Shown piece by piece: positions 15,925 through 41,451 of a DNA stretch of 64,000 nucleotides. The stretch is from NCBI RefSeq assembly GCF_035083965.1, contig NC_089738.1, forward strand, positions 8,210,734 through 8,274,733, written 5' to 3'. The notes below the pieces were generated by a model that was given only the letters and a program-made list of their open reading frames with translations, made no database searches and was not told the DNA's origin. This stretch comes from Branchiostoma lanceolatum (lineage: Eukaryota; Chordata; Leptocardii; Amphioxiformes; Branchiostomatidae). The translations under genes and the position numbers were made by a program. The number at the start of each line of letters is the position of its first letter. Positions within the stretch are counted from its first letter, which is position 1.

Positions 15925-16784
15925 TAGTATTCTTCTCTTCCTTTCTGCCATAGGCATATATAGTGATGTATTTGCAGCTTTTTTGTATTTGTGTTTTGAT
16001 AACCCGCACGTGATAAGTTCAAACTAGACGCGATGTGTTTCAAACTCAAAAGGAAGGGTGACTTGTATTATAATTTATGGTATGCATAGGAAATCTGCCT
16101 ATTTTCGTGTGACTGCGCGAAGCCCTACCTGTTACCGCAGCGCTAGCTTTTCATCGTGGGCGTCATGCGCTCATGGATTGTCAAAATAAATCAACAAGCT
16201 GGCACTGTATGTCAGTGAGCATGACACTGGTATATATAAGCCCTCGATAAGTCACGGTATATCATCTAACTCAGACTAGGAGACGCGTATAAAACATCGA
16301 CAAACAGTCGAAAAAACATATCCGAAAGAACCTTGAAGGCTCCACTGCGATCACTCCAAAAAACGCTGAAGTGAGCGCAACCATGGTGATCATTGAGCGA
16401 TGCCTGAGAGATGATGGAGCGACCTTAATGGCAATCCTTGAGCACTCACTGAGCACTCTGGCAATTTTAGGTTGTTTAGTGGTCGCAGCGAGGTCGACGT
16501 CTGAGTAGAAAGGGGGTACTAATCATGTACATGTAGCATTCCATTCGTTGGGATGGTTTTGTGGGAATGTTAAATGTGAATGTTCTCATTGTAACTCGGA
16601 TGTTAAGCCGCTCAAATAAGCAGCTTTCACTGTTGAGCGTGAGATGGAAAGAAGAGGAACAAATAATGATGACGTACAATATTCAATTTCCCATGACATC
16701 GACACATGGCATGGTTCGAATGGTTTCTCTCGTCACGTGCGTACATTGACCTTAACTGCACAGTGCTCATGCGGCGTGTTGAGC

Positions 16785-19700
16785 CTAGACGGCAGACAAC
16801 AGAAATCCAGAAAACGAAGATTGATGACCACCACCAGACAGATAGTAGCCACTATGCACCCTGAGATTAACTTCGTCCCCCATATTGAGGTGCAAAATGA
16901 TACTGTTACTAGCAGTGTCGTAGCTATCGCTGCTACCAGTATCGTACACCCACTGATCCTTATACACCGAGCCGTTTATAATGAGATCTATGTATACATC
17001 ATAACTCGAGTATTTGTGACCAGTGAAGAAGAACATGTAGTATCCGTCGAGTGGAGCACGGAACTTCCCGGTGGTTTGGTCATAGTGGCCGCCAACGTTG
17101 GCGTCGATGATGTTGAAGATGGCGTCAGTTTCTGACGAGCCAATCCTACTGTTGAGGCTTGCTGAGAAGCCAGCTTTCCATTCTATAGGAGATGTCACAT
17201 AATAGTGTACGTTATTCCTGCGTCGTCATTTTTTATCTCCAAGCAAAATAGAGATATGTTTGGGTGTGTCTGTGTGTGTGTCTGTGTGTTTGTGTTTCCG
17301 GATTGTTGTAGTCAGCATAACTCAAGAACCTCTGGACGGATTATGATATTTGGTATGTGGGAAGATGTTGAGAAGACGAAGATCAGGGTCGAGTTTGGAC
17401 TCGCTCCCTGGTATCTTTTGACCTGGGCGTGCTATATGTTCTTGATCTTTTGGTGGTAGATAGTTTGTGATGTAAAGAAGAGGAGGTGTAAGCTTGCAGC
17501 TTGCTCTGAGCGTTTTTGTTAAAATCTTCCAAGGAGAACAACTGAAGAAAGAAATGACAGGTTTCCATTATATTTGATATGCAGGTAGCTTGGACAAAGA
17601 TGTGCATAATGAAGTGCAAAGTGGGGCTTTACTCAGTTTGAATCATTACCTAATTCTGAGTCACCAAATAAGACATTCGTAACTGCATAGTAATGACTGA
17701 AACAAAACGGAAAGAAATCTTCAATCAAGATCAAGAAGAGCTTACTATACATACCGTAGCAGACGACCCCGGCATCCTCCTCGTGCTTGCAGTTGTTGTC
17801 ACCCCAGTCCTTGTGAGTGCACTGGGACAGAGACGTCTCGTTCCCGAGGCATTCCATGTCATCCAGCCAGATGATTCCGGTTCCTTCTCCAAACGTTGCA
17901 GCTGCACTTTGGATCGCCTGATTGTTTGGACAAATATAAAACCCTCAGTGTCATCTTCTGATGCCAAACATAATCATGACCAGTCATACTATTCTAATAC
18001 TAATCTCCAAGCAAATCTAACGTTGGCAAAGACTGAATCCGCACCCTTGGGTGGCTATGAAAATTCCTTTTGTCAGTTGGATACGATCTTTGCCACCATT
18101 AGATCTTCTTGGAGATTGTTCTAATACCGCTTAGAAGATATGCTAACATATTGGCTTAACAATTTGTAATTGTACTTTTAAGTAGAAATTGGGTATTCGG
18201 CATATCTTACCTCCTTAGCTTGTGGGAAACCAAGCTCACGACACACTACGTTGGCTTCTTCGAGTCCCCAGCTGTCGTCACATATGGACCCCCATTGTCC
18301 GTCATAGAACACCTCCACGCGCCCTTGGAATGAGGTTGCGTTGGCCCCCGCAAGACGAACTTGAACAACTACAAATGGCAGTGAACTATGAGTACAACGT
18401 GCCCTTGGATTTATTCACAAACTATTTTCTACACAAGAAATTCACATGTGCTACAGTATTTCACCTTAGAAGGGTGAAATTTACCAACAAAGAAGGCATA
18501 CCAATATTACAACACAGGCCTGAGAACCCTTTAAACCCTGTCATGCCTCGTTTTGGTGAATGACCTCGAGCTGACCCCGGAAAATTCAAAATGGCCGCCG
18601 TAACTGGAAATGGTCTATTCGAAAGTGTTCGTTGGCGCATTCGAAAGTTTGTCACCTCCAATAAATTTGGAGCCTTTGAAATGCTTATGTATGCGACTAA
18701 GGCCCAATTTATACTTGTTCAATAAAACTGTAGTACTACACATGGTAGTCTACTACTGTAGTAGACTTCAGATTCATGTCCACTTTACACTCAACACAGG
18801 AAGCCTAGCAGGACACCCCACTGTTCCTGATTGTCACGAAACTGTAGTGACCTATTGTGACCTTTGAAAAATCGCGGGAGGGAATTTCAGCATGTTTCTT
18901 ATTTGTGAAAAGGTAGGGGGTTTATCTGGTGCAAAATACTAAGGAAAAGGGCCTGACAGCTCGGTTTTACTGAGAAAACTAGAGAATGACCACAGATGAC
19001 CCGAAATGGAACACGCGATCAGTTCGAATCACGTCAGATCGAACATGGTTGTTGGCTTCGAAGTGAAGTCTACTACCACTGTACTACATTTTCGCTTTAC
19101 ACCCAGTTCGAAGTCTCGCAGAACCTCCGCCGAAGTGTAGTACTACTACCCCCGAGGTTGTAGTAGACTTCTGCAGTAGTTTTCTTTTTACACACAGAAA
19201 AAAAATGTAGTCTACTACAGTAGTAGACTACCATGTGTAGTACTACAGTTAAAAGGACAAGTGTAAATTGGGCCTAAGTCAACTTGAAAACAAAATACGT
19301 CAAAATACTTTGAGTGATTCAGCAACAGAAAATACGTACTTGACAATTCTCTCAGATCCCCCAGCAGCTGCATGTTTATGTCGAACTCTTGCGACAGCTG
19401 TCCAATTTCGGTCTGTTGAATGCCGTCATACAGTTGAACAGATTCAGCTGTATTCTTCAGCGATTCTAAATACAAAAGCAATAGACAAGTACTTAGAACA
19501 ATGTAGTATCATTCTTAATGATATCTTATTACTATCCGTTATACATGTTTGTAATTCTTATCTAAGATTTTCTAGTTGAAAATAGGTGATCAGCATACAA
19601 CGGCACCCATCGCTAGATTTGGTGTTTGGGCTTCTATCACAAGCGCACAAAAAAAATAAGATCCGTGCTGACCTACCAAGTGTTTGTTGAAGCTGGTCGA

Positions 19701-22532
19701 TGTTCTGCTGCCGCTGCTTGATGAGTTTCGACTGCTGAATGATGTGGAAAGCTTGTTCATTCAGAATCTCCATCAGCTGGAGCTCAGTCGGAGAATCTTA
19801 TAGAAGGTAATGTAATAGAATAATACATTGTGTCACTCATTGAATGACATTGTTAATTCAATTCAAAGAACAAAATACGCTGCCAAATATGACATTTGAA
19901 TGTTATTGGATGCATCGTTTAGAATGTTGTAAAACATAGTTGCTAATGTCTTGTCTTTTACAAATATCAAGCTTAGTAGTGCTGCATGATTGAAATCAGA
20001 GGGGGGCAAGCCATGACACGGAAGAGGGCAGTTCAACGCGACCTCAGTGAGATGGGCTGTACCCGGGAGGGGTTTCAGCGGGTGGCAGCAAACAGGACAG
20101 CATGGACAAAGTGACGGCCCGCCTCAGTGGAAGACTGAAAAGCGGCGAGGATTAGTGATTGAGATGATTGAAATCATATTCCTTACCTAAGCATGCCACC
20201 CCGGCATCCTCCTCATGTTTGCAGTCGGTGACGTTCCATCCGTTGTGGCTGCAGGACTCGATCCTCAGTTCGTCGCCTTTGCAGTCCACGTTGTCTAACC
20301 AGATCGGTCCCGATCCTGAGCCGAACGCTGCTTGATGGTACACGTCTACAACGCCTGGCAAGCCCAGCTGGCGGCACACAACCCGTCCGTCTTCCATGTC
20401 AAACTGGTCATCGCAGACTGAGCCCCAAACACCTTCGTGCAGAACCTCCACACGACCGTAGGTACCGTTGCCACCAACCAGTCTAACTGTCCGACCTTTT
20501 GCAGCCAATGGAAAAACTTATAAGTTCCAAAAGAAACAGTAAGACCGTAACTCAGCATGGAAATTAGTCCTTCCTACCAAGTCATCAATTTCATTCTGAA
20601 ATGGGAAATAAATTTCACAGAAAACTGTAATAAACTCTTCTAGGGTGGATTTAGCAATACTAGACTTCACAAAAGCTTTTGACAAAGACCGCCATGACGG
20701 ACTCGATTATCTCAACACTGGAGAACTGAGGAATTCAATGCACTACACTAGATTCGCAGAAAAAGCAGTGAGCAGACGGTAGGGGTAGAAGGGAGTCCCA
20801 GATAGACTAGCATCGGGAGTTCCACAAGGAATCGTTCTGGGACCATTACTTTTCCTCTTGTATATGAATAAACTACCAGCTTGATTTAAATGTGCGGTTA
20901 TTTGCCAATGACTGCCTGCTACTTGTAGAGTTGTCCACTCACAACTTCTGCAAGAAGATCTGGACGTCCTCGAGGAATGCAAAGCAAATGGTCCATGTGG
21001 TTTAATCCCTAAAACACCTACATTATGCATATAACAAACAAACAAACGTACCACCCACGCAGCTACTTTTGCGGTAAGACTGACCTAAAGTTTTGTCCAT
21101 ATTTCCAAAAGATAAAGCTAAACAGACAGTGGGGACCCGGGTGTTTACACATAATTTGTGTGCATGCCGGGCAGTAATGGTACAATTATGACAATACACA
21201 TCACATTTACGAAGAAAGAAAAAGATAAACTGGAAAGTGTGCACATGTGCAGAATCAAATTGTACGAAACAACTACGAAAGGAGTGCTGGATCTAAATCT
21301 ACAATGGACTTCTAAAACTACAGTGAAATTCACTCCACTACAGAAGCACAAATTCAAGATTATGCATGATGTACAAAATGACTTATGGTGGACGCACCAA
21401 CTACTAAGTATTTGATACCAGCTCAGAAAAGAACAAGGAATACCTGGGTTATCAACCCACGATTGAGGTGTTCAAAATTCGCTTTCGTAGAGTGGAACTC
21501 ATAACCACCAAACAAGGGCAGCAGGAGCATTCTAATTGTGCAAAGGTTAGGTATGATCGTTCGCTTAGTGTAATTCATGCTGCCCCGCTGCGTGTCTAAC
21601 GCGCTGGTGTGATACGCCTATAGCTAAGGGCGGTTATACCTGCTATACAGATACAAATACAGAATCCAAACATATAAACTCACCAGCAAAATGCGCCGGA
21701 GTATCTCGCTCCAATGGATTCACATCCTATAAAACGGAAAAACGTTTTAACTTCAACTGGCTATTCTGTTCGTGTCTTCCCCTGATTTAATAGTACAACT
21801 TTAATGTTCCCTTTAAACATGTTTTGGTTAGTTATTGAGTTGGTAACCCTACGCCAACTTTTACCGCCTTTTAGACTCATTTCCAAACTCCGGCGCCATT
21901 TTGATCCTCTCTCGCGAGAGTACAATCTGGCGAGAGTGCGCGTGATTTGAGCACGGGAGCGGTAACAGCATGGGAGCGGTGGCGTCCCCAGTAGAAATCA
22001 GTGTTAAATCATCTCCGGCTGGGAGTTGAGTTGTTTTTTCTCCTCGGTGAAATTCGTCGATTCATATGCATGCCAAAAGTAGACAGTATTTTTGTGGACA
22101 CTTGTACTCGATATCGGCCAGTAAAATTGTGAATTTCATTTTTTGCACAGTTCCTGACGGGCTGTCGAACGCGCGCTGCAGTGATAGAGAGCATTGTATA
22201 TGATTACACCGCGTGCTTGTAATAGTTTCCACGGATAATGCTAGCTCAAGTCAAGACAAAATCCCACAAAAACGCACACATATCCTTGCAGCTACGTATA
22301 AATATAACAAATCAACTAATCACTTTAAATGTACTTAAATGCAATGATCCCCTAAATGTGTGATACATCTTTGTCATAACAAAAACATGCCCATACGTTA
22401 CTTTATTTTAACAGCTACCACCCCAATGAGGTGACAAATTCTGTTCGGCAAATTCATTTTGCTTACCTGGTCTTCTCGTACAGCAGCAGATTGGACAACG
22501 AAGAGCGACACAGCAATAGCAATAGCTAGCAT
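16785..22532 (-). CDS. gene A: secreted SRCR - coiled coil - SRCR - C1q protein
   Basis: Eight exons, minus strand: 22467-22532, 21684-21726, 20187-20495, 19677-19796, 19340-19465, 18211-18368, 17755-17917, 16785-17182. All junctions are GT-AG and the lengths sum to 461 codons (460 aa). Order: signal peptide (about 1-18, [17 protein letters not shown]), acidic linker, SRCR1 (37-139, six Cys, ending [11 protein letters not shown]), two exons rich in Leu/Gln/Ile that look coiled-coil forming (140-221), SRCR2 split over two exons by a phase-0 intron (222-328), and a C1q head (330-460) ending FSGFLLSAV. There is no collagen repeat and no membrane anchor. SRCR and C1q are ligand-binding folds of innate recognition proteins, so a secreted recognition or agglutinating role is inferred. 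Gene D is the close paralogue. Intron 2 holds an antisense LINE; intron 5 holds a MITE absent from D. Confidence 0.9.
17258..17292. repeat. short TG-rich microsatellite
   Basis: Alternating TG with occasional C (GTGTGTCTGTGTGTGTG) lies just upstream of the gene A C1q exon, inside its last intron. Confidence 0.7.
18701..19274. mobile_element. Harbinger-like MITE in gene A intron 5, with TAA target duplication
   Basis: The 574-bp element has inverted ends GGCCCAATTTAYACTTGT followed by about 45 bp more of pairing rich in GTAGTACTACACATGG and GTAGTCTACTACTG. It is flanked by a direct TAA duplication (18698-18700 and 19275-19277). The corresponding intron of gene D has a single TAA in the same context (GTTGAC TTA GAACATTT read on the gene strand near 39207), an empty site. 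Three-base TWA duplications are typical of PIF/Harbinger elements. The interior has no transposase. Confidence 0.85.
20575..21665 (+). mobile_element. CR1-like LINE remnant in gene A intron 2 (antisense to the gene)
   Basis: Decayed reverse-transcriptase pieces are readable on the plus strand: LDFTKAFDK near 20670, [20 protein letters not shown] near 20813, and FANDCLLL near 20898. About 1 kb downstream is the characteristic 3' end (GTGGAACTC, then CCGCTGCGTGTCTAACG, then GGGCGGTTATACC and a degenerate ATACAGATACA tail). Frameshifts and stops disrupt it. The same element occupies the same intron of gene D, so it predates the inverted duplication. Confidence 0.85.
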
Positions 22533-23124
22533 CTTGTTTGTATTTCTGCAGTCAAAATAGGTAGAAAACAACGCATAATTAAATTGTAAAAAGCTTCTTG
22601 CAACTTTGGTACGTCAGAGTCAGACTGACCAAATACTAATTCAAATGGAACCAAAGTTCTCTTATTGAATATCATTGAACACACGTTTTGGTAGAGAAAA
22701 AATTACAACATCCTTGAATATTATCAATAACATGATAAGACAAAGAAATCACCAATGTCTTATGATACGGTCATTATTGAAAAAGGGGACCCCGCCGGGT
22801 AATTTACGGGCTGCTTTTTGCATTTTGGGGCGTGAACCCTACGTCGCCCCGTGGGTCACCCTGTGGCTACTAGGCTATATGGGGGCACAGCCGGGCGCCT
22901 GGGAGACTTTAACTCAGAATTAAATTCAACCCAGGACGCGGTAGCAAATAAACGCCCTGAGATAATTGTGCGAACACCGAGAGCTCCCCCCCCCCCGATA
23001 CCCGGCAGTCAACCGGGATAAATTTGTGGCTTCGGGGCCCGGCAGGGACTACATGTACACCCCTTGCGGGCACTGAAGCAATTGTGAACGAAGCATTAGT
23101 TGGCAATGTACAAGCCGAACTCAC

Positions 23125-23200
23125 CGTTGTCTGCACTCAATCGTGGTAAGGGTTCCTATGTGAAGACTTAGAACTCGGTGTATAAATATATATAAATACC
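23125..23200 (-). promoter_or_regulatory. gene A core promoter and non-coding first exon
   Basis: Read on the minus strand, a TATA-like stretch (TTTATATATATTTATAC, 23181-23198) is followed by GTTCTAAGTCTTCACATAGG and an exon ending at CAACG/GTGAGT (donor next to 23125). The same order and sequence occur at gene D (35517-35595). The coding exon of A is preceded by an acceptor (GACTGCAG, just above 22546), so this is most likely a 5' UTR exon spliced to the start-codon exon. It is supported by cross-arm conservation only. Confidence 0.7.
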
Positions 23201-23506
23201 TACGTGCGACAGGTGTGTGGACTCCAGGGTTTATCAACACGGGGATGTTTTTTAAACATCGATCCTTTCCCTGTTTCCGCGCTTGTTTGCTCACCTTTCA
23301 CCCTCCCTCTCCCCCACAGTGGTTGTCGACCGGTCATGGCCAGGTCAGTTAACATAATGCTAAATCTACAGGCCTATGAGGAAAAATTATTTTTCGTACT
23401 AAAAACACACCGTAATCCGTAAGAACTGGATTTTGCACAACACACATCGACATGTGTACATGATTATGACCCAATCGAGGACGACAATAGGTACCGCACG
23501 ACAAAC

Positions 23507-23812
23507 AGTACCGCTAAAGCCCCGCCCCGGCCCCGCGGCACGCTGGCAACCTCGCTGCGACGAATTGACAAAGCACTCAACGCATTTCATCGATAAAAAA
23601 CGAATCTTTTTAAGCTTTGTGTTTTTTTTTGTCTTTTAGGTCATAATTGTAAGTTTTGAATTATATTCCTATCATGAAGTCAAGGGTTAAACAAATCCAG
23701 TTTAGAACACATCGACGCCGCCAGCCGTCACGTAAGCCTCTCTTTCACTGGACCCGCGGCACGCTGGCCGCCAGCGTGCCGCGGGTCCAGTGAAAGAGAG
23801 GCTTACGTGACG
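23507..23812. mobile_element. MITE remnant ending in a perfect 87-bp palindrome, between promoters A and B
   Basis: The segment is absent from the equivalent C-D intergenic region, where flanks resembling CGCACGACAAAC and TTACGTGACGTCAAATG are nearly adjacent. The interior (CTTTGTGTTTTT...GTCTTTT, ATGAAGTCAAGGGTT) matches MITEs at 44153 and 58040. The right part, 23726-23812, is a palindrome with 43-bp perfect arms around one base (C23769), including CACTGGACCCGCGGCACGC, which is also the terminal repeat of the 58040 element. Confidence 0.75.
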
Positions 23813-24055
23813 TCAAATGTGTGCCCTCACGGACGCATGAACTTACGGACGCTCGAATTTTCCGTCGCCTGAACTGTCAGAGAGCCGGCCGTGAACCGGT
23901 CAGGGTGACGAAAAACAGGACGAGAGGTGTTTGCTGTGTAAGATACTGGCTATATTCATAACACTTCAAATAAAGATTGCGGACGAAACATCCGTATTCA
24001 AATAAAAAAAAAACTCAACAGGAGAAAAGCACCAACTGTTCATTCACATTAAAAT

Positions 24056-24130
24056 TATATATAGTCTCTGTCTTTCTGTAATTACTACATTAGCCAAGCA
24101 CAACCGGCAAGAATACGTATATCCACAGAG
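24056..24130 (+). promoter_or_regulatory. gene B core promoter and non-coding first exon
   Basis: TATATATAG at 24056-24064 is followed by CTTTCTGTAATTACTACATT and an exon ending CCACAGAG/GTAAGA (donor at 24131). Gene C has the same series on the minus strand (34197-34271). The start-codon exon of B is preceded by an acceptor (TTTCTTTCCAG, ending 24348), so a short 5' UTR intron of about 217 bp is inferred. Gene A's promoter lies about 860 bp away in the opposite direction. Confidence 0.75.
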
Positions 24131-24363
24131 GTAAGAATTTTTTTTCCATTCTCCAACATATCTCACTTTGGCTTCTGCTTGACAGGCTTGATCATTGGAT
24201 GTAATAATTGTCATATATGTACGGTCAGTTTAAGACTCTGATATTGTATCTATTGTTACAGTGTGTCTAGATTAGAACATCTTTAGCCACAGAGCAGGCT
24301 GAAAAATCTGAAACAAGTACAATGTAAATGCAATTCTTTTCTTTCCAGTTACCATCAACCACA

Positions 24364-27300
24364 ATGGGTTTTGCCATTTTCTTCTTCTTCTGTGCGCTCG
24401 CCTGGTCATCAATGCCAGACGTAAGGGTAAGTTTCTGGTTATTTCTTTGCCAGTTCACTAGATGCTTTTTATTAGGGTCTTTGTATTCCATTCCTATGAA
24501 CTTATTACATGCTGGTTTACTTTGTTTTCAGAGCGATGCAGGGGACATAGTGTCCATCTATAGTGCTGATGGTATGTAACCGAACGTATTACAAAATTTA
24601 ATTGTTTGAAGTGGGACTTCGTTTTTTTATGATTGTCGCCACATTTTGCCTGAACTTGAAAATGAGTTTCCTAAATGTCTTAACAAAGTTAGTTTTGCCT
24701 GTGACAGACACCATTAGTTTTATTGAATATGTGCTGATACTGTAGATGTAGTATCACTTATTGTGGCGTCGGTGTGGCGCAACTGTTAGAGCGTTTGACT
24801 CAGAACCAATAGGTCCCGGGTTCGATACACACCGAGTCTCTCCGGCTAATCTCTCAAAATGTGTGCCAAAAACACACTACGGATTTGCTTGCCGATGTGC
24901 CAATATTTATCACATTTTCCACCAAGAACCGTTAATTTTGTATTATTTTTTATTTATTTAGTATCACTTGGGTAGTTAATGTAGATCATATCTTTCGTAC
25001 TCTTCAGCAATCCCCATCCGCCTGCGTGACGGCACCGCCAGCTCCGGTCGTGTGGAGGTCTTCTACAACGAACAATGGGGCACGATCTGCGACGACGGGT
25101 TTGACCTTGACGACGCCAAGGTCATATGCCGTCAGCTTGGATTCGCAAACGCCACGCAAGCCTACACACAGGCACATTTTGGGGAAGGTGCCGACCCGAT
25201 TTGGCTGAGTAACCTCGCCTGCAACGGCGACGAGGAAACGCTGAAGGACTGTCAGCACAGCGGCTGGGGGGTCGCCAACTGTAAACACGAAGAGGACGCC
25301 GGCGTGGAGTGCTCTGGTATTTCTATGTACCGTCTTATTGATTTCTGCGGGAAATACCGTATACGTAGTCAGACGACAGCGATGTTTTTATCTATGGTCG
25401 GGTTTTTATTCAACATTTGCAGACTCACATTCGTAGTGTTTTTGAAGCTTTATTTTTTTATGTGTATGACAGTTGTGTGACTGCTTGGTACAGATCTTAA
25501 ATCGGGCCGCCGCTGCGCAGTGACCGATGACCGCAGTGATTCGGCGCTACCAATATTGTTGTCAAAATTCTATCTAAAAAAAGTTTATGTTAAGGTATAT
25601 TATGAATGCAAATGACAGCTGTGTGCAAGGACTCGGTTTATTTACCTTTCTAATCTAGCAAAGTCAGTGGCGAAAAACACGGCGAACTTATATATCGCTA
25701 ATCGATAACATTTCTTGTCGTCACAGGAACACCATCGACAGCCGAGCTGTTCCAGATGCTGAACGACCAGGCCAACGCTCTGATCCAGCAAACTGCGATA
25801 CTTGACGCTCAGCACACGACAATCACGACCATACAGCACGAACTAGGTAGGAGGCATGTAGTATACCTCTCATTTTGTAATGTCAATGTAAAACTTTAGT
25901 ACTAGCTATAGACTTCCTTGCCTGGCTCACCATTAGTTTACGATGGTCAAATATGGGCGCAAAATTTCCAGACTCTTTTAGACTTCAAACCATGTTCGAT
26001 CATGTTCGAAGTGACGTATTTCAATAGAATGCGCGTTCAATTCGGGGTCACTCGCCGTCGCCGATCATTTGCATGTTTTCAATGTAAATCCGCGCCAAAA
26101 CGGGCTTTCTTTCCGAGGAGCCTTGCATAAGAAGAAAACCCCCTTTATTACAAATAGAAACCATCTTCTGGACAGTATATCTTTGCTGACATTTCGTTGT
26201 CGACATGTAAGATATATATTAATCAAGCTATAGCTACTGGCGCCAATGTTGACGACCTTGAATGTTGCAGGGCTTACTGATATGTGATTACGCCGGCATC
26301 AAGTACCCCCTCCCCCTACATTATTCCAAACTGGTATTTAAAACCCAAGCAAAGTGCGTTCAAACTCACTTATCGAGGGTTTAGCTTAGTGCGATCGAGG
26401 ACTTGCGTTTTAGGGAATTTTTGTATATGGCGGAAGTTTTGAGTTATCGGTGTTTGTGAAAAAATGACTTGTTCGACCTCTTTTCGCCCGTAGAAATGAT
26501 TTGAATGAGAGATCGATAATGATCCTAAGACAGATATTTCAATGTAGCTATTATATTTCAATGTAAGGGTTATATTTAAGAATACACAAAACATCCCGAT
26601 TTTTAGTCACGTTTAGGACCAACTTAGATCAGTTATCTGACTTTTTGTCCACAGAACATCTTTTCTAAAACAGCCAACTTGGCGTATTTAAGAAAACATC
26701 CTGACAGAATTATGCAAACTGCGTAAAACGGTAGGAATTGAGGAAGACACATTTCAATTACAATTGGCGAGACACGTGAGAGAGGTCATTTTTTCTAACT
26801 ATCGCGATCTTTTAAAAGATGTTACAGGGCCGCGGGGGAGTCCCGGTAACCTGATACCCTCGCAGCGGAAAGTTTCCCTAGCAACCGACTGCCGTGTTCT
26901 CTGCTCCAGGTGGATTTCCTAACTTTCTCCTGACCTGGTATCTTTCTAAACAGACCATCTGGCTGCCGACGTGCCGACCCTGGTGCAGGCCAGCACTCTT
27001 CAGAACAACGAGATCAGTCAGCTTCAGCAGCTCATGGGGACCCTGGACTACAAGGTGGACGAACTCAACAACATGGCAGGTACGTTCCATCTGCAAAAGC
27101 CAAAACTGTAACTGATGGCCAAAGTAGCAGCTTTCAACCTGGTTACCTTTGCTCCGTCTAAACGCCGAAAGTCAGATGATATGAAAACTCAGATTATGAA
27201 GAGACACGCTGTTAACGAACAATTGATACTATTGTTTTGGTAACGATTTGTCATCTTGCATGACTTAGTTGTTGATTGATCTTTTGGCAAAGTGATGTCT

Positions 27301-28724
27301 GTCTCAATTTCAATCAATGGACATTCCACTGCAAATACAGGTGTGCGAAGATGGTTTTGTAATAGGAAGCCTTTTTTGTGTCTTCCAGTTTTCCCAATCC
27401 GCCTGATGGGCGGAAACGCGTCACATGGGCGAGTCGAAGTGTGGCACGACGGCCAATGGGGGACGATCTGTGACGATCTGTGGGATATCAACGACGCGAG
27501 GGTGATTTGTAGACAGCTCGGGTACCAGGACGCCATTTCCGCCTCTGTTCATGCCGTGTACGGGGAGGGTACAGGGCCGATCCTGATGGACAGTGTGGAC
27601 TGTACGGGCTCGGAGCCTCACCTGTCCGCTTGTCCACATGAGGGATGGGCCGTGCACGACTGCAAGCACGAGGAAGACGCCGGGGTCGGGTGTCTCTATC
27701 GAGGTAATTGGTTATTCAAACATGTACGCATGCGCAATGTCAAAGGTGAAGGCCCCTGGCTTGTGAATAGTTCTCGTCTCCACATTGTCTCGATTTGCAT
27801 AACAATGTCCAGACGGGTTTTGTTAACGTCTCAGGAGTTGTCACCTTTGACACTGCACATGCGTAATCAAATGAGTGGGCGTATTAGACATGGCTAAGAA
27901 ATTGCATGGTGGCCGTTTCGTAGGTGTTGTTTCTGATGTATTGTGTGCAACATGCACCATATATCTTCAAGACAATCTGAAACTTTATACCAAAGTTTTC
28001 ATCTGTTGGTACAACGCGGTTTTCGACCAAGTTTCAGAGGTTCCCTTGGAGACTCTGGCTTGATTACCGCGCTATGGATTTCCGGGCTCCTTTGATCCAA
28101 TCTTAATGATCTTGTTGTCACGTTTCCAGAAAGTCGTGTCAGAAGTGAGTAGCTTAGAATACGCAATGAGTCGATGAAAAACTGTGTATGGTGAGCATAT
28201 TTTCAAAAGAGAAGATACAAAGATAGATAAGCTATGTCGTCCAGAATGTATAACACAGCTTAGTTTTCTTCCTAATCTGAGATTTTCATTTTTTTTCTGC
28301 AGATGAGCGTGGCACTTGGGCAGCATTCTCGGCTGGCTTTACGACTAGTAACTACAAACCGAGCAGCAGCAGCCAATACACCATCCCTTTCAACCAAGTC
28401 TACACTAACATCGGAGGCCACTACTCCACCAACGGAAGATTCACGGCACCCATTAGTGGCCACTACTTCTTTGTAGTTAATGCTTACTCCCAATACCTCG
28501 GTAGTTACGATGTGCATCTGAACTTCATGATAAACAATAGTGCTTACAAGAGTGGGTGGATTATTGACCATGACAACCACGACAGCTATGATACATCTAG
28601 TAACAGCATAATTGTCCATTTGAACAAAAATGATTATGTTTCCATCAATATTTATAGCACTAGTTATGCTCTGTCTGGGTACGAGAGAACCACCTTCTCT
28701 GGTTTCTTGGTTCAGGCAGATTAG
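24364..28724 (+). CDS. gene B: secreted SRCR - coiled coil - SRCR - C1q protein
   Basis: Seven exons: 24364-24420, 24532-24571, 25008-25316, 25727-25846, 26954-27079, 27389-27703, 28303-28724, summing to 463 codons (462 aa). Order: signal peptide (MGFAIFFFFCALAWSS), linker, SRCR1 (33-135), coiled-coil-like exons (136-217), SRCR2 in a single exon (218-322), C1q head (324-462). Each SRCR has six Cys and ends in HEEDAGV.C. Exon 1 may instead end six bases later (AAGG/GTAAGT at 24426), adding two residues; I follow the position matched in gene C. The exon 3 donor is weak (TCTG/GTATTT). Unlike A and D, SRCR2 has no internal intron. Intron 2 carries a SINE and intron 4 about 1 kb of sequence, both absent from paralogue C. 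The role is inferred to match gene A: soluble recognition or agglutination. Confidence 0.9.
24760..24958 (+). mobile_element. tRNA-derived SINE in gene B intron 2, with 11-bp target duplication
   Basis: A tRNA-like head (A box TGTGGCGCAACTGTTAGAGC, B box GGTTCGATACAC) is followed by a short body and a T/A-rich tail. The direct repeat TAGTATCACTT flanks it (24749-24759 and 24959-24969). Gene C's matching intron carries one copy of the target (GTGGTATCACTTTGC on the gene strand), so the insertion postdates the duplication. Confidence 0.88.
25885..26910. other. ~1 kb segment in gene B intron 4 absent from gene C
   Basis: Intron 4 of B is about 1107 bp; the equivalent in C is 98 bp and matches only both ends (CAATGTA... 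and AACTTTCTCCTRACCTGG). The extra sequence shows no open frame of interest and no clear terminal repeats. It is either an insertion in B or a deletion in C. Confidence 0.6.
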
Positions 28725-29002
28725 CATAATAGCTGACGTAAATAAAAGATGTGAGGCATTATGTGCATGTTGGTCTGAAATTCATATCACAGCTAACATC
28801 ACTTCGAATTTAGGTATTTCGAATGAATGTTAAAATGTTCATTGTATCGCGAAAACTGTGTGCATGAAACACAGGGTACCACGGCTTGCTATCTTGTTTT
28901 GGTGTGTTTATCAACGGCATCAAGAATGAGATAGTCATAACCTACAGTAAGACTGTCACTCTTTTGCAAGATAGATCTGTGTGTTTACATTGTTTTGATT
29001 GA

Positions 29003-29008
29003 AATAAA
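29003..29008 (+). terminator. gene B poly(A) signal
   Basis: AATAAA sits 279 bp after the stop codon, within a 3' UTR conserved with gene C (CACGGCTTGCTA, TTTTGGTGTGTTTA, ATCAAGAATGA, then (A/C)AATAAAGAC). Confidence 0.8.
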
Positions 29009-29169
29009 GACGAATGACGACATTATAAGTCATCATCATTTCCTTTCAAATATTGAAAAAAGCACAGAAAGTATACTTTGATGATTAGAGTCAACTAGAA
29101 GGTAAAAACGTACTAAAGCAACCAATAACCACATCCTACTTACAGATCTAACGTAATCAAAACAAGAAA

Positions 29170-29938: not shown

Positions 29939-29959
29939 TAGACAAAGTATGTAGTCATG

Positions 29960-30190
29960 TTTCCTTCGGATTGGACGTTAAATGGAGGTCCCGTGTTTGA
30001 GGAGAGCCGCACGTTAAAGAACCCACCACACCTTTCGAAAACAGTAGGGGCATGCCCCGGTGTGCGATGGTCCAAATCCTTCTGTCTGGAGTTGGTGTTT
30101 CACTACAAATCACCCGGATGGAGGCCTGGCGAAGGGCACAACATCGAGGCGCATGTCCAGACATGTACCTATAGGGCATCGTCCATATGA
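29960..30190 (+). mobile_element. tRNA-derived SINE, copy 2 (head lost)
   Basis: The body matches the SINE at 3453 (GAGGAGAGCCGCACGTTAAAG, AACCCACCACACCTTTCGAAAA). The A and B boxes are missing, so it is a 5'-truncated copy. It lies in the spacer between the two arms. Confidence 0.6.
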
Positions 30191-30450
30191 TAAAGGTATG
30201 TGGAATGTGGTCGTACTGAAGTTAACGCTACGAACTCGGAATGCTCCATTTCTATAGAAACAATTAAACATGCATGTCGAGAATGCTGTTTAATTCTGTG
30301 TACTGTATCTCTTTGTGGGATGGAGCGGGGTATGGTTCAATGGGGAATACTTAAGTACATTAACGATATCCTATCCTTATATAATCGATAAGTCATTGAT
30401 ATGCAAGGCCGCCTTGCGATTCTCCATCTTCATCGGGATTACGTTTGACT
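30177..30450. repeat. block shared by the 3' flanks of genes C and D
   Basis: ATCGTCCATATGATAAAGGT, GGAATGCTCCATTT, ATGCATGTCGAGAAT, GGTATGGTTCAATGGG and CGCCTTGCGAT...CATCGGGATTAC recur in reverse complement at about 41645-41965. Relative to each gene the block lies downstream in the same order. I do not see it beyond genes A or B. Confidence 0.7.
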
Positions 30451-30590
30451 TATATAAGTAGGATGTGGTCACGGCTTGCTTTTGTACGTTGGTAACATGA
30501 CTCTAATAACTAAAGTTAACTTTTCACCTTTTTGTGATTTGTTTTCAAGAGTTGTAAAGAAATGATGATAACACATGTCGGCATTTTGTC

Positions 30591-30596
30591 TTTATT
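30591..30596 (-). terminator. gene C poly(A) signal
   Basis: TTTATT on the plus strand is AATAAA on the minus strand, 286 bp after the stop codon. Its surroundings match the gene B 3' UTR. Confidence 0.8.
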
Positions 30597-30881
30597 TGAA
30601 TCAAAGAAGTCTAATTGCACTTATCTCATCTTGCAATAGAGTGACATCAATGATAGACGTATGACTATTTCATTCTTGATGTTGTTGCTAAACACACCAA
30701 AAGAAGGTAGCAAGCCGTGGTACGCTGTATTCCATGCACACATTTCGCGCGATACGATTAACATGATATCAACATTCATTTATACAAATATCTAAATTCG
30801 AAGTGATGTCAAAGCTGTGATGTGGATTTCAGACAAACATGCACATACTGTTTCACTTTTTTGTCTACTCCAGATGTTCTG

Positions 30882-33800
30882 CTAATCTGCCCGAACCAAG
30901 AAGCCAGAGAAGGTGGTTCTCTCGGACCCAGTCAGAGCATAACTATTGCTTCGAATCCTGATGGAAACATAATCGCTTTTGTCCAAGTGGATAATGATGC
31001 TGTTAGTTGATGTATCATAGCTGTCGTCAGTGTCAGCGTCGTATATCCACTGAGACTTGTAAACGCTGTTGTTTTTCATGAAATCTATATACACTCCGTA
31101 GCTACCAAGGTATCCGGTGTGAGCATTAAGAACAAAGAAATAATGTCCGCCAATGGGTGCCGTGAACCTGCCGTTGGTGGAGTAATGTCCCCCGATGTTT
31201 GTGTAGACCTGGTTGAAAGGGATGATGTAGGCACCGCTCGGGTGGGTGTTACCAGCAGTCCATCCAGCGGAGAATGCTGCCCAGGTGCCCCGCTCATCTG
31301 CAGAAAAAAATGACAATCTCAGTTTAAATGAAAACCAATCTGTGTTATACTTTGTAGACGACATATCTTGTCTATTTCTGTATCTTTCAAAATGTGCTCA
31401 CCATATACATTTTTCATCGACCCATTGGGTATTCTAAGCCACTCACTTCTGACACGACTTTCCAGAAACGTGACGACAAGATTGGATCAAAGGAGCCCGT
31501 AATTCGATAGCGAGGTAATTAGGCCAGATCCCGAGAAGTTGGTCGAAAATAAGTGTTTTGAAAATGTATGGTGCGTGTTGCACACAAGACCATATCAACA
31601 CCCATTGAAGCTTTATCGGTTGCTGAAACACCATAATGAAACACCCACCATGTCTTATAAGCCCACTCGCAAATCGAGACAATGTGGACACGAGAACTGT
31701 GTACTTGAAGCCAGGCGGGTTCACCTTTGACACTGCTCATGCGTACTCAAATCTGCGAGTGGACTTATACATCCTTCGTCATGTTTGATTAACCAGTTAC
31801 CTTGATAGAGACAGCCAACCCCGGCGTCTTCCTCGTGCTTGCAGTCGTGCACGGCCCATCCCTCGTGTGGACAAGCGGACAGGTGAGGCTCTGAGCCGGT
31901 ACACCCGACAGTGTCCATCAGGATCGGTCCTGTACCCTCCCCGTACTCGGCATGAACGGAGGCGGAAATGGCGTCCTGGTACCCGAGCTGTCTACAGATC
32001 ACCCTGGCGTCGTTGATATCCCACAGATCGTCACAGATCGTCCCCCATTGGCCGTCGTGCCACACTTCGACACGCCCATGTGACGCGTTTCCGCCCATCA
32101 GGCGGATTGGGAACACTGCAGAAAACACACAGAAAAGATTTCTTTTACAAAGCCATTTCCACACATGTCTGATTTAAAAACAAATGGCAGTTGAGAAATC
32201 AACAGTTCCGAAAACATCTTCAGCTGCAGGTTGGTAGAATATAGGATATTGGAATCATCATTTTTTACAACGTTGAATATCTGTTACTTACTTACGTTTC
32301 GATGCCTGCCAGACATCATCGTCAGAGCTTCTGACTGTAGTGCTGCTTCTCGCCGCTATCATGGCTATATGTAACTGATATGACCACATCAGCTAGATCG
32401 AAGCTGTTACCAGGAGTCTATTTACAGATGAAACATACCTGCCATGTTGTTGAGTTCGTCCACCTTGTAGTCCAGGGTCCCCATGTGCTGCTGAAGCTGA
32501 CTGATCTCGTTGTTCTGAAGAGTGCTGGCCTGCACCAGGGTCGGCACGTCGGCAGCTAGGTGGTCTGTTGGATATAAAGATGCCAGGTTAGGAGAAAGTT
32601 TGATATGCCTCGATTGTCTACATTGATATACGGAAAAAAGAGGTTTGCTATATGCGTACTACCTAGTCCGTGCTGTATGGTCGTAATTGTCGTTTGCTGG
32701 TCGTCAAGTATCGCAGTATGCTGGATCAGAGCGTTGGCCTGGTCGTTGAGCATCTGGAACAGCTCAGCTGTTGATGGTGTTCCTGTGACGACAAGAAATG
32801 TCATCGATTAGCGATACATAACGACAATAGCCCTAACAAAACACGATTGTTTTGCTGATCTTATGCATAAGTACGTCGTGTTTGTTGCCACCGACTATGC
32901 TGGATTAGAAAGGTAAATATACCATCACACAGCTGTCATTTGCATTAAAATATACTTTAACATATTCCTTCTTTCATTTCTTCTTTTTTTTTAAATAGAA
33001 TTTTGACAACAATGTTAATAGCGCCGAATCACACCGATCACCGGTCACTGCTGTATCAAACAGTCACACAACTATAATACACATGGTAAATAAAAGGTTC
33101 GCAATACACCAAAGACATGCGTTTTCAAATGTTTGTTGAGTAGACACTCGACCATAGAAAAACAAGACAAATATGAATGCCTGCATACGTTATTTCCGGC
33201 AGAAATCGAAAAGATGGTACATGATTGTTCTTACCGGAGCACTCCACTCCGGCGTCCTCCTCGTGTTTACAGTTGGCGACCCCCCAGCCGTTGTGCTGAC
33301 AGTCCTTCAGCGTCTCCTCGTTGCCGTTGCAGGCGAGGTTACTCAGCAAGATGGGGTCCGCACCTTCCCCGAAGTGTGCCTGTGTGTAAGCGTGCGTGGC
33401 ATTTGCGAAACCAAGCTGAAGGCAGATGACCTTGGCGTCGTCAAGGTCAAACCCGTCGTCGCAGATCGTGCCCCATTGTCCGTTGTAGAAGACTTCCACA
33501 CGACCGGAGCTGGCGGTGCCGTCACGCAGACGGATGGGAATGGCTGAAGAGTACGAGCGACATGATCAACATTAACCAGCAAAGTGATACCACATCTACA
33601 GTATTAGCACATATTCAATAAAAGTAGCGGTGTCTGTCACAGGCAAAACAATGGTTGTTAAGACATTTAGGAAAATTTAGTCAAATCATTTTAAGCTTAG
33701 ACGAAATATGTACAGACATAAAAAATAACTAATTGGTCATTTGAAATAATTAGAATTTTGAAAATGTTCGGTTACATACCATCAGCACTATAAATGGACA

Positions 33801-33990
33801 CTATGTCCCCTGCATCGGTCTGAAAACAAAGCAAACCATGGTCGTGTAATAAGTTCATAATAAAGGCATATATACCTGATAAAGAAATAAAAGCACGCCT
33901 TGTGTACTAGCAAAGAAATAACCAGATACTTACGTCTGGAATTGATGACCAGGCGAGCGCACAGGAGAAGAAGAAAAGGACATAACCCAT
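30882..33990 (-). CDS. gene C: secreted SRCR - coiled coil - SRCR - C1q protein
   Basis: Seven exons, minus strand: 33934-33990, 33780-33819, 33235-33543, 32663-32782, 32439-32564, 31801-32115, 30882-31297, summing to 461 codons (460 aa). Order: signal peptide (MGYVLFFFSCALAWSS), SRCR1 (33-135), coiled-coil-like exons (136-217), single-exon SRCR2 (218-322), C1q head (324-460). Exon lengths equal those of gene B except the last. SRCR1 departs from consensus in two places: ICLQLGF where its relatives have ICRQLGF, and PILLSN where B has PIWLSN. All Cys are retained, so the fold should be intact although ligand contacts may differ. The introns are compact (intron 4 is 98 bp). Gene C is convergent with B and divergent from D. 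Confidence 0.9.
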
Positions 33991-34196
33991 TGTGGTCGAT
34001 GGTATCTGGAACCTGTGAAAGAATTGCATTACATTGTTTCAAATTTTGCAGTCTGATTTGTGGCTTAAGATTTTGCAATCTATATACACTGTCGCATGCA
34101 ATACCATAGTTCAAGACTGACCATATAATAATCACTTTATCTCAAGCCAAAGCCAAAATGAGATGTTGGAGAATGTCAAAAAAACACTTTTCTTAC

Positions 34197-34271
34197 CTCT
34201 GTGGAGATACGTATTCTTGCCGGTTGTGCTTGGCCAATGTAGTAATTACAGAAAGACATAGACTATATATA
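34197..34271 (-). promoter_or_regulatory. gene C core promoter and non-coding first exon
   Basis: On the minus strand, TATATATAG (about 34263-34271) is followed by CTTTCTGTAATTACTACATT and an exon ending CCACAGAG/GTAAGA (donor adjoining 34197). This mirrors gene B. Confidence 0.75.
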
Positions 34272-34604
34272 ATGCCAATGAGAAGGAACAGTTGGTGTTT
34301 TTCTCCTGAGTTGTTTTTTTATTTGAATACGGATGTTTCGTCGGCAATCTTTATTTGAAGTGTTATGAATATAGCCCGTATCTTTCACTGCAAACACCCC
34401 TCGTCCTGTTTTCGTCACTCTGACCGGTTCACGGCCGGCTCTCTGACAGTTCAGGCGACTGAAAGTTCGAGCGTCCGTGAGGACACGCATTCGACGTAAC
34501 GTAACTTTTCGTCGTGCGGTATCCATTGTCATCCACGTTGGGTCATGATCATGTAGGGCACATGTCGAGGTGTATTTTGCAATAGCCAGTTCTTAAGAGT
34601 GATT

Positions 34605-35315
34605 AGGAACAAAGTAAGCATGATCCTTAGTCATGACTCTCCCTTATACAAAATAAGAAAATAGGTTTGCATCCAGCGACGCAAAGGAAGTTATATGGAA
34701 GCGTCATGCCTGCCGCAGATCATATGTAATTCGACACCGCGTATTTCAGCAGATTTTTCTAACCCACAGAGTGGCTAGCATCTCTTAAAAGTACCTGTTG
34801 TCTTTTATGTCATACGTTACGTCCCCAAAGACTGCCCGGCCGGGCCCCGGATTAGAAATGTGACCAAAGCTTGAAAGCTTGGAGGAATTCTGAGGCGTTT
34901 GATTTGGGGCTTGATAAATGTGTTGTGTTTAAAAACAAGATCAACCTGTCTGCGATAATTGATTGTACTTGGCAAATTAGCCTTAAGATTCTCATAAAAG
35001 CTTTACTCTTGAATTACATTCAGCGAAGTGACAGGCATTAAGTGGCAAGCGAATACTTTTCTGCATCACAGGGTCTAGGGTTCGAATTTATTGCGGAGTA
35101 GCTTTCTGTTAAAGTGTTAATCTGTCCGTGTAACTAGCTATGGACGGCGTCATGAAGCCGAATGTACCCCAAACATTACACCATTGGATGAAATGGCGAA
35201 ACGATAAAATAAACATTAAAATTTACATATTCTAATGCTAACAAACTAGAGTACTAGTGTTCCGTGGATTTGATTTCTAGTCCTAAGCTAGACTAAATTA
35301 CGTTGAGTGAATTTT
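34605..35315. other. segment between promoters C and D not found between A and B
   Basis: Flanking blocks (AACTGG(C)TATTGC-like at 34580-34600, and GTACGAAAAATAATT at 35318) align with neighbouring positions around 23395-23445 in the other arm, leaving about 710 bp extra here. It contains a solo end of the GGTCAC/CGGCCGG MITE family at 34833-34863 but no gene. Confidence 0.55.
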
Positions 35316-35516
35316 TATACGAAAAATAATTGTACCTCACAGGCCTGTACTTTTAGCATATGTTCACTGACCTGGCCATGACCGGTCGACAACCACTGTG
35401 GGGGAGAGGGAGGGTCAAAGGTGAGCAAACAAGCGCGGAAACAGGGAAAGGATCGATGTTTAAAGAACATCCTCGTGTTGATAAATCCTGGGGCCCGCAC
35501 ACCTGTCGCCAGTAGC

Positions 35517-35595
35517 TAGTTATATATTTTTATGCACCCGGTTCTAAGTCTTCACATAGGAGAAGCCCTGACCACGATACGGAGCGGAGACTACG
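35517..35595 (+). promoter_or_regulatory. gene D core promoter and non-coding first exon
   Basis: TTATATATTTTTATGC is followed by GTTCTAAGTCTTCACATAGG and an exon ending ACTACG/GTGAGT (donor at 35596). This matches gene A. A conserved upstream block (TGACCTGGCCATGACCGG then TCGACAACCACTGTGGGGG, about 35368-35405) is shared with gene A at 23310-23345 and may hold regulatory sites. Confidence 0.7.
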
Positions 35596-36175
35596 GTGAG
35601 TTAGCTTGTACATTGTCAACGAATGCTTCATTCACAATTGCTTTGAAGCCCGCAGTTAGTGTACATGAAGTCCCTGCCGGGCCCCGAAGCCAAAAAAATT
35701 ATCCTGGTAGACTACAAGGTACCGGGGGTAGCTCTCGGTGCTCGCACAATTAGCTCATAGCGTTTATTTGTTACCTGGTCCTTGGTTGAGTTTAAGTTCA
35801 AGTTAAAGTCATCCGGGTGCCTGGCCGTTCCCCAAAATTGCCCGGTAGCCGCAGTGTGTCCCACGGGGCGATGTAGGGTTCATGCCCAAAAGTCCAAAAA
35901 ATTGCCCGTAAACTACCTGGCGTGGTCCCATTTTCCAACTGTGAACGTGATATTAGACAATGATTGTTTCTTTGTCTTGGTATGCTATTGATAACATTGA
36001 AGGATGCTGTCAATTTTTTTGCTCTACCAAAACGTGTGTTCAATGATAGTCAACAATAAAGCTTTGGTTCCATTTGAATTGATATTTCCTCAGTCTGACG
36101 TTCCAAAGTTGCAAGAAGCTTTTAAGAATTTAGGTGTTGTTTTTTACTCTTTCTGACTGCAGAAATACAAACAAG

Positions 36176-40885
<4,710 letters not shown>

Positions 40886-41451
40886 GCTCGACACGCGCAC
40901 GCAACACTGTGCTGTAAAAGTAAAGGTCAATGTGATGTACGCACGTGACAAGAGAATATCTAAACCATGTCATTTGTCGATGTCGTGGGAAATAGAATAT
41001 TGCAAGTCACCATCCATTTTGGTCTTTTTCCTCTTGTTTACATCGCACACTCAACATATAGGAAGCTGCTTACTTGAGCAGGCGTAACGTCTGAGTGACA
41101 TTTAGTACAAGTTTTCTATCGTAGCATTTCATCACACCCGTCCTAAACCATACCACGTGGTTAGTACCCCCCCTTTCCAATAAGACGGCGACCGCGCTGC
41201 GGCCACTGAGCGATGTCCAAGTTGCCAGAGCACTCAGTGAGCGTTCACGGATTGCCAAGGTCGCTCCATCATCTCTCAGGAAACGCTCAACGATGACCAT
41301 GGTCGTCCTCACCTCAGCGACCGTTTTGAATGTTCACAGTGATCGCTGAAGGAGCCTTCTAGGTTCTTTTGGATCTGCTTGTTGATGTTTTATACGCGTC
41401 TCCGAGTCTAAGTAAGGTGATCTACTGTGATTTACAGAGGGCTTACCAGCT

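What the first reader, a model, noticed from the sequence alone, without database searches (positions are those of the whole stretch)
16250..41430. Four-gene inverted cluster of secreted SRCR-coiled coil-SRCR-C1q proteins
Four intact genes share one domain order that I do not recall as a named family: signal peptide, SRCR, coiled-coil-like exons, SRCR, C1q head. They have no collagen stalk, which classical C1q proteins use to trimerise; here the coiled coil could do that job. They are arranged A(-)B(+)C(-)D(+) as a divergent pair and its mirror image. A soluble multivalent recognition or agglutinin system is a reasonable hypothesis, and this is the strongest candidate for an undescribed system in the window.
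Basis: partly seen in the sequence, partly recalled or inferred. Interest (0 to 1): 0.85.

Follow-up and report, generated by a model that had tools for sequence, protein, structure and literature searches.

The report
Secreted SRCR–coiled coil–C1q gene quartet
Four neighbouring animal genes appear to encode secreted proteins that join two scavenger-receptor modules, a rod and a C1q head, with the head changing much faster than the rest, which fits a family of immune recognition proteins but has not been tested by experiment.

Summary
The window has four complete gene models, A(-), B(+), C(-), D(+), each about 460 aa: signal-like start, short linker, SRCR, an 82-residue heptad region, SRCR, C1q; no collagen. 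They sit on two arms of an inverted duplication judged too diverged to be alleles. The fusion is supported: A and B are 42% identical yet share exon order, phases and three exact exon lengths, and the SRCR2-to-C1q intron offers no new signal-like start in 4 of 4 genes. Between arm copies, change concentrates in the C1q head (dN 0.13-0.16, against 0.015-0.029 for the rest), and 8 of 8 SRCR domains keep a D/D/E cation site. Best model: a soluble oligomeric recognition protein with a constant SRCR chassis and differing C1q heads. Coiled coil instead of collagen is already known (PMC6835236). My searches of an open-access library showed no described SRCR+C1q chain, but I opened only 15 papers and no eukaryote protein database was available. 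Species, transcripts, ligands and structure are unknown; relaxed constraint on the head is not excluded.

The parts
22467..22532 (-). Gene A exon 1, signal-like start (coding part; ends phase 0)
21684..21726 (-). Gene A exon 2, 43-nt linker (phase 0 to 1), chosen among candidates
20187..20495 (-). Gene A exon 3, SRCR1 (309 nt, phase 1-1)
19677..19796 (-). Gene A exon 4, rod exon 1 (120 nt, phase 1-1)
19340..19465 (-). Gene A exon 5, rod exon 2 (126 nt, phase 1-1)
18211..18368 (-). Gene A exon 6, SRCR2 first half (phase 1-0)
17755..17917 (-). Gene A exon 7, SRCR2 second half (phase 0-1)
16785..17182 (-). Gene A exon 8, C1q head and stop
24364..24420 (+). Gene B exon 1, signal-like start
24532..24571 (+). 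Gene B exon 2, 40-nt linker, chosen among candidates
25008..25316 (+). Gene B exon 3, SRCR1 (309 nt)
25727..25846 (+). Gene B exon 4, rod exon 1 (120 nt)
26954..27079 (+). Gene B exon 5, rod exon 2 (126 nt)
27389..27703 (+). Gene B exon 6, SRCR2 (one exon)
28303..28724 (+). Gene B exon 7, C1q head and stop
33934..33990 (-). Gene C exon 1, signal-like start
33780..33819 (-). Gene C exon 2, 40-nt linker, chosen among candidates
33235..33543 (-). Gene C exon 3, SRCR1 (309 nt)
32663..32782 (-). Gene C exon 4, rod exon 1 (120 nt)
32439..32564 (-). Gene C exon 5, rod exon 2 (126 nt)
31801..32115 (-). Gene C exon 6, SRCR2 (one exon)
30882..31297 (-). Gene C exon 7, C1q head and stop
36176..36247 (+). 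Gene D exon 1, signal-like start
37016..37058 (+). Gene D exon 2, 43-nt linker, chosen among candidates
38256..38564 (+). Gene D exon 3, SRCR1 (309 nt)
38739..38858 (+). Gene D exon 4, rod exon 1 (120 nt)
39050..39175 (+). Gene D exon 5, rod exon 2 (126 nt)
39550..39707 (+). Gene D exon 6, SRCR2 first half
40189..40351 (+). Gene D exon 7, SRCR2 second half
40491..40885 (+). Gene D exon 8, C1q head and stop
16237..29158 (.). Left arm of the inverted duplication (genes A and B); weak homology reaches 16166
30437..41445 (.). Right arm of the inverted duplication (genes C and D); weak homology reaches 41632

Best explanation
These are four genes of one animal family of secreted pattern-recognition proteins. 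SHOWN by sequence: signal-like start, SRCR1, an 82-residue rod with heptad periodicity, SRCR2 and a C-terminal C1q head in one open reading frame; no collagen; a conserved D/D/E triad, known elsewhere as a cation site, in every SRCR domain; strong constraint on SRCR-rod-SRCR and much faster change in the C1q head between arm copies. INFERRED: the rod and the C1q head hold the chains in trimers, so one particle would carry six SRCR domains and one C1q trimer. The SRCR part does a constant job, such as cation-dependent binding of polyanionic or microbial surfaces or of a fixed host partner. The C1q heads carry the differing specificities. The particle agglutinates or opsonises, as SRCR agglutinins and some invertebrate C1q lectins do. 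The four genes arose when a divergent A/B pair was duplicated and one copy ended up inverted.
For: Complete models, splice sites and Pfam domains in 4 of 4 genes. A and B are 42% identical overall and only 19-30% in the rod, yet keep exon order, intron phases and the exact lengths of SRCR1 (309), rod 1 (120) and rod 2 (126); an accidental join of neighbouring genes would hardly be kept so long (inference). The SRCR2-to-C1q intron has no ATG-plus-hydrophobic start in 4 of 4 genes and is only 139 nt in D; read-through peptides past SRCR2 differ between copies after the first residues. Rod periodicity in 4 of 4. SALSA site-2 residues D1019, D1020 and E1086 (changes D1019A and D1020A abolished binding of three tested ligands; PMC7043408, passages) are D, D, E in 8 of 8 SRCR domains. 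C1q heads: solved relatives are cerebellin-1, adiponectin, complement C1q and C1QL3, which I recall as trimers. Divergence: A/D dN 0.127 in C1q against 0.015 elsewhere, omega 0.45 against 0.08; B/C 0.162 against 0.029, omega 0.31 against 0.15; Fisher tests on rounded nonsynonymous:synonymous counts p = 2.4e-5 and 0.016.
Against: No transcript, protein, oligomer or binding data. Omega in the C1q head stays below 1, so relaxed constraint would explain the pattern without selection for diversity. In B/C the synonymous divergence of the C1q exon is also raised (dS 0.52 against 0.20, p = 2.5e-4), so part of the excess is age, local rate or conversion history. The signal and linker exons also change fast (omega 0.94 and 0.82 on few sites), so the head is not the only fast part. 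Sites that vary in A/D and in B/C do not coincide more than chance (9 of 127 columns, 7.1 expected, p = 0.23); clustering is seen in A/D (86 of 5000 shuffles) but not in B/C (1369 of 5000). Only two gene pairs, so no site test is possible. No structure job was accepted, so variable sites could not be placed on the head. The nearest solved C1q relatives include synaptic organisers. The crinoid C1q lectin OXYL forms tetramers and octamers (PMC6409975, passages), so trimers are not certain.
Confidence: 0.6

Rival explanations
1. Extracellular-matrix or cell-surface organiser: the proteins cross-link host ligands in development or at cell contacts, as cerebellins and C1QL proteins do, and the head differences are partner specificity rather than microbe recognition.
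For: Solved matches of the C1q heads include cerebellin-1, C1QL3 (best single-domain score, 77 bits) and C1QL2; SRCR matches include lysyl oxidase homologue 2 and MAC-2 binding protein.
Against: Solved structures are biased to vertebrate proteins, and the top three rows are chains with several C1q copies, so the ranking says little about function; SRCR and C1q expansions in invertebrates are usually tied to immunity (PMC10855680, PMC6835236, passages).
Confidence: 0.2
2. Relaxed constraint: after duplication the C1q heads mainly drift, and the SRCR-rod-SRCR part is the working portion.
For: Omega 0.31-0.45 in the head, higher than elsewhere but below 1; varied columns of the two pairs do not coincide.
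Against: All four heads are intact and keep 43 invariant residues in an alignment of 140 columns across a 43-46% identity split, with omega below 1, so they are still constrained. Not exclusive with the main reading.
Confidence: 0.3
3. Gene-model artefact: separate SRCR and C1q genes lie side by side and are wrongly joined.
For: Such errors have been argued for lancelet domain combinations, with one fusion refuted by ESTs (PMC4967905, outline with abstract and section 12). No transcripts were available here. Other introns (B 3, B 5, C 3, D 5 and intron 2 of A, B and D) do contain ATG-plus-hydrophobic stretches, so a break at another junction is less firmly excluded.
Against: Same order in two old paralogue lineages, matching phases, no new signal-like start in the SRCR2-C1q intron of 4 of 4 genes, 139-nt intron in D.
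Confidence: 0.05
4. Assembly artefact: the right arm is the other haplotype placed in inverted orientation.
For: Gene content of the arms is the same in mirror order.
Against: Substitution divergence in alignable blocks is 8-26% in 10 of 13 intron pairs (two of these rest on 38 and 47 columns) and 3 of 13 pairs have no alignable block; this exceeds heterozygosity that I recall for animals. Exon divergence follows codon constraint.
Confidence: 0.05

Closest known systems
sC1q-like type II proteins of bivalves (secreted, coiled coil plus C1q)
   Same: Signal peptide, coiled coil in place of collagen, C-terminal C1q, tandem gene duplication (PMC6835236, passages).
   Different: Two SRCR domains flank the rod here; the paper's main text has 0 occurrences of SRCR or scavenger.
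SALSA/DMBT1 and other soluble SRCR proteins
   Same: SRCR domains with the D/D/E cation site used for ligand binding (PMC7043408, passages; here); secreted agglutinin (recalled).
   Different: No C1q head and no coiled-coil rod in those proteins (recalled).
Class A scavenger receptors (SR-AI, MARCO, SCARA5)
   Same: Oligomer stalk plus SRCR domain (recalled); solved SRCR domains of these are among the hits.
   Different: Those are transmembrane, most have collagen and one terminal SRCR (recalled); here there is a signal-like start, two SRCRs and a C1q head.
Complement C1q, adiponectin, C1QL and cerebellin proteins
   Same: C-terminal C1q fold by sequence.
   Different: No run of three Gly-X-Y in the rod, no cysteine in rod or head, SRCR domains present.

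Membership tests
SRCR superfamily, group A type | SRCR domain above the curated cut-off | tested here: met
   Pfam PF00530, two stretches in 4 of 4 proteins, E 3.3e-63 or better
SRCR superfamily, group A type | Six cysteines (group A) rather than eight (group B); the rule is recalled | tested here: met
   6 Cys in 8 of 8 domains
SRCR superfamily, group A type | Domain split over two exons (vertebrate group A, recalled) | tested here: inconclusive
   Split in SRCR2 of A and D only; single exon in the other 6 of 8 domains
C1q-domain-containing proteins | C1q domain above the curated cut-off | tested here: met
   Pfam PF00386 in 4 of 4, E 1.4e-18 or better
sC1q-like type II (secreted coiled coil plus C1q) | Secretion signal | tested here: inconclusive
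   ATG plus hydrophobic start conserved between arm copies; no dedicated signal-peptide predictor was run
sC1q-like type II (secreted coiled coil plus C1q) | Coiled coil ahead of C1q | tested here: met
   3.5-residue periodicity in 4 of 4; COILS itself not run, and an SRCR lies between rod and C1q
sC1q-like type II (secreted coiled coil plus C1q) | No further domains | tested here: not met
   Two SRCR domains in each; by the published scheme (PMC6835236) it would seem to fall under 'other'
Classical C1q / C1q-like type I | Collagen stalk | tested here: not met
   No run of three Gly-X-Y in the rod, Gly+Pro 3.7-4.9%; Pfam lists no collagen family
Class A scavenger receptors | Type II transmembrane anchor | tested here: inconclusive
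   The hydrophobic segment lies at the N terminus, as in a signal peptide; cleavage was not tested
Trimeric C1q/TNF assembly | Forms trimers | not testable with these tools
   Structure jobs were not accepted in twelve calls

The most novel reading that the evidence does not exclude
A germ-line recognition family built like a two-part tool: a constant, cation-binding SRCR-rod-SRCR chassis fused to C1q heads that are diversified by duplication, with the arms of an inverted duplication exchanging sequence so that the chassis stays uniform while the heads at the arm ends drift apart. Heads from different genes could mix in heterotrimers if the near-identical rods of A and D, or of B and C, pair with each other, giving more specificities than genes.
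Probability: 0.2. Interest if true: 0.65.

Novelty: new variant of a known kind. Interest (0 to 1): 0.45.

Why it matters
If the proteins are made as modelled, two of the most expanded invertebrate recognition modules work in one chain, without a collagen stalk. The contrast between a frozen SRCR chassis and a fast-changing C1q head gives a direct test of which module carries specificity, a question that is hard to ask when SRCR and C1q proteins are studied apart. The near-identical rods of paralogues make heterotrimer mixing testable.

Tried and rejected
Tried without result: whole genome of the window (none held); Rfam (0 matches at gathering score); structure prediction of the C1q heads (twelve calls, 37, 42, 48, 53, 56, 59, 63, 65, 68, 71, 74, 76: each answered 'machine is busy', none accepted), so there is no model and no fold search; C1q relatives in IMG/VR (116 pattern stretches, 0 relatives). 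SRCR relatives came from IMG/VR (1 locus) and prokaryote genome contigs (42 loci). At E 0.01 my profiles found SRCR in 42 of these 43 loci and C1q in 0 of 43 (the C1q profile was built from the four window heads only), so no shared architecture was seen within the DNA held.

Considered and rejected: haplotype artefact; false gene fusion at the SRCR2-C1q junction; extra SRCR or C1q exons in the window; shared hot spots of head variation in the two pairs (p = 0.23). Clustering of varied head sites was seen in A/D (86 of 5000 shuffles reach it) but not in B/C (1369 of 5000), so I do not claim variable loops. A tree of the 8 SRCR domains did not resolve the order of their duplication (support 56 of 100). 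Poly-A hexamer counts were not informative. A sleep script only waited for the structure queue.

Papers, all seen in part. Passages: PMC10855680 (plus section 6), PMC11312191, PMC6321704, PMC9334734, PMC2575513, PMC4284660, PMC5787515, PMC6835236, PMC6409975, PMC5752451, PMC13337447, PMC7043408, PMC10672478, PMC4346834 (SRCR only in a figure legend). Outline with abstract, and section 12: PMC4967905. Other papers that hold both terms (for example PMC3308963, PMC5940198, PMC5877582, PMC3308329, PMC3567963) were seen in search listings only. Supplementary tables of SRCR partner domains (PMC10855680, PMC2575513) could not be opened, so an SRCR+C1q entry there cannot be excluded. The tenth search was about the SRCR cation site, not about prior description.
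Full report
What is there. The region 16.2-41.4 kb holds four intact multi-exon gene models. Gene A (-) runs from 22532 to 16785 in 8 coding exons, B (+) from 24364 to 28724 in 7, C (-) from 33990 to 30882 in 7, and D (+) from 36176 to 40885 in 8; the proteins have 460, 462, 460 and 461 residues. The signal exons end in phase 0 while SRCR1 starts in phase 1, so a linker exon was sought; the best candidate at matching places is 40 nt in B and C and 43 nt in A and D, though other candidates exist. Modelled introns have GT donors and AG acceptors. Pfam reports two SRCR stretches and one C1q domain in 4 of 4 proteins. A profile scan of six frames finds no further SRCR, rod or C1q exon in the window.

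Is the chain real? A warning applies: it has been argued that many novel lancelet domain combinations are gene-prediction errors, and one fusion was refuted by ESTs (PMC4967905, abstract and section 12). I do not know the species here; it is an animal by gene content (inference). Three observations speak for a real chain. First, A and B are old paralogues, 42% identical overall and 19-30% in the rod, with synonymous sites mostly saturated, yet they keep exon order, phases and the exact lengths 309, 120 and 126 nt. Second, the SRCR2-to-C1q intron shows no ATG-plus-hydrophobic start in 4 of 4 genes and is 139 nt in D. Third, the read-through peptide past SRCR2 differs in length and, after the first residues, in sequence between arm copies. 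Against this, several other introns (A 2, D 2, D 5, B 2, B 3, B 5, C 3) do contain such starts, so breaks elsewhere are less firmly excluded. Every inner exon unit is phase 1-1 (SRCR2 of A and D is 1-0 plus 0-1), the class favoured in exon shuffling in lancelets and, as an ancient feature, in animals (PMC4284660, passages).

The rod. Hydrophobic power at 3.5 residues exceeds shuffles of the same composition: 14, 7, 0 and 0 of 2000 shuffles reach it for A, D, B and C; the rod has no run of three Gly-X-Y and no cysteine. It is 82 residues in all four although identity between A and B falls to 19-30%, which suggests that length and heptad pattern are what is kept (inference).

SRCR domains. All 8 have six cysteines, the WGxxCDD motif and HEEDAGV. 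The SALSA cation site 2 residues (D1019, D1020, E1086) are D, D, E in 8 of 8. At site 3, D1058 is D in 6 of 8 (S in SRCR1 of B and C), D1059 is D or N in 6 of 8 (S and T in SRCR2 of B and C), N1081 is N or D in 8 of 8. At site 1, D1023 is D in 6 of 8 (G in SRCR2 of A and D) and D1026 is D or E in 8 of 8 (the placement uses the residue spacing given in PMC7043408). In that paper the single changes D1019A and D1020A abolished binding of SRCR8 to its three tested ligands (passages). Cation-dependent binding is therefore plausible here and untested.

C1q heads. Profile search of solved structures gives cerebellin-1, adiponectin and complement C1q first (chains with several C1q copies, which lifts their rank) and C1QL3 as best single domain (29 distinct sequences at E 1e-8 or better). 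Between arm copies the head changes fast and most of the rest hardly at all: A/D amino-acid identity is 77.7% in C1q and 96.7% elsewhere; B/C 75.2% and 93.5%. dN is 0.127 against 0.015 and 0.162 against 0.029; omega 0.45 against 0.08 and 0.31 against 0.15. Fisher tests on rounded nonsynonymous and synonymous counts give p = 2.4e-5 (A/D) and 0.016 (B/C); synonymous change is also higher in the B/C head (p = 2.5e-4) but not clearly in A/D (p = 0.18). The signal and linker exons also change fast (omega 0.94 and 0.82, few sites). Omega below 1 means that diversifying selection is not shown.

The inverted duplication. Arms 16237-29158 and 30437-41445 match in reverse, with weak homology out to 16166 and 41632. 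In ungapped blocks of at least 30 columns and 65% identity, intron divergence is 8-26% in 10 of 13 intron pairs (two of them on only 38 and 47 columns); 3 of 13 pairs had no such block and were dropped. The cut-off biases these figures low. Intron 2 of A/D is less diverged (89 of 1129 columns, 7.9%) than intron 1 (17.6%), the intergenic stretch (14.6%) or the 3' flanks (25% in A/D, 19% in B/C), although it holds a decayed retrotransposon-like relic. Sequence exchange between the arms is the simplest reading (inference). A repeat of about 314-358 bp flanks the right arm in inverted orientation (30165-30478 and 41975-41618, 73% identical); recombination between such copies could have flipped a tandem duplicate into the present mirror order (inference).

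How it probably works. The most likely mechanism is a secreted oligomer, probably a trimer, in which the rod and C1q heads assemble three chains, six SRCR domains give cation-dependent avidity for polyanionic or microbial surfaces or bind a constant partner, and the C1q heads differ in what they recognise. Shown: architecture, conservation and the divergence contrast. Inferred: secretion, oligomer state, ligands, immunity, agglutination.

What is known. Coiled coil plus C1q is the commonest class of eastern oyster C1q genes (262 genes, 55%; PMC6835236, passages). A crinoid C1q lectin, OXYL, aggregates bacteria and was estimated to form tetramers and octamers, without collagen or coiled coil (PMC6409975, passages), so a stalk is not needed for multivalency and trimers are not certain. 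Fusion of a lectin domain with C1q is known (16 sSUEL/C1q genes in the eastern oyster; PMC6835236). [quoted passage not shown] C1q occurs once in that text, as a separate oyster family (PMC10855680). Phrase searches for SRCR-C1q and variants returned 0 papers; the other searches listed papers of which I opened some, and none of the passages that I saw describes an SRCR+C1q chain. Hence 'new variant of a known kind': known modules and a known stalk solution in an architecture that I could not find described.

Noticed in passing
20600-22100 and 36667-38152: Intron 2 of genes A and D and its surroundings hold a decayed reverse-transcriptase-like relic on the strand opposite to the gene, present in both arms; intron 2 differs by only about 8% of columns. 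The RT identification is from recalled motifs in the translation; one piece had no Pfam match.
   Followed up: partly
30165-30478 and 41618-41975: A repeat of about 314-358 bp flanks the right arm in inverted orientation (73% identity) and could have served for an inversion.
   Followed up: partly
7030-8034: Open reading frame of a rhodopsin-type GPCR (Pfam 7tm_1, E 1.7e-59, profile positions 1-228 of 260); the last part of the domain is missing from this frame, perhaps in another exon.
   Followed up: partly
24760-24960: Gene B carries about 200 bp, absent from gene C, between linker exon and SRCR1; part reads like a tRNA-derived short repeat (recalled pattern).
   Followed up: no
11705-12467: Tandem arrays of a 15-bp unit (14.5, 6.3 and 6.1 copies).
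   Followed up: no
L002-L043: SRCR domains 36-55% identical to SRCR1 of gene A occur in contigs binned as Deltaproteobacteria, Myxococcota and other bacteria, up to seven domains in one open frame (L006); no C1q found in the DNA held.
   Followed up: partly
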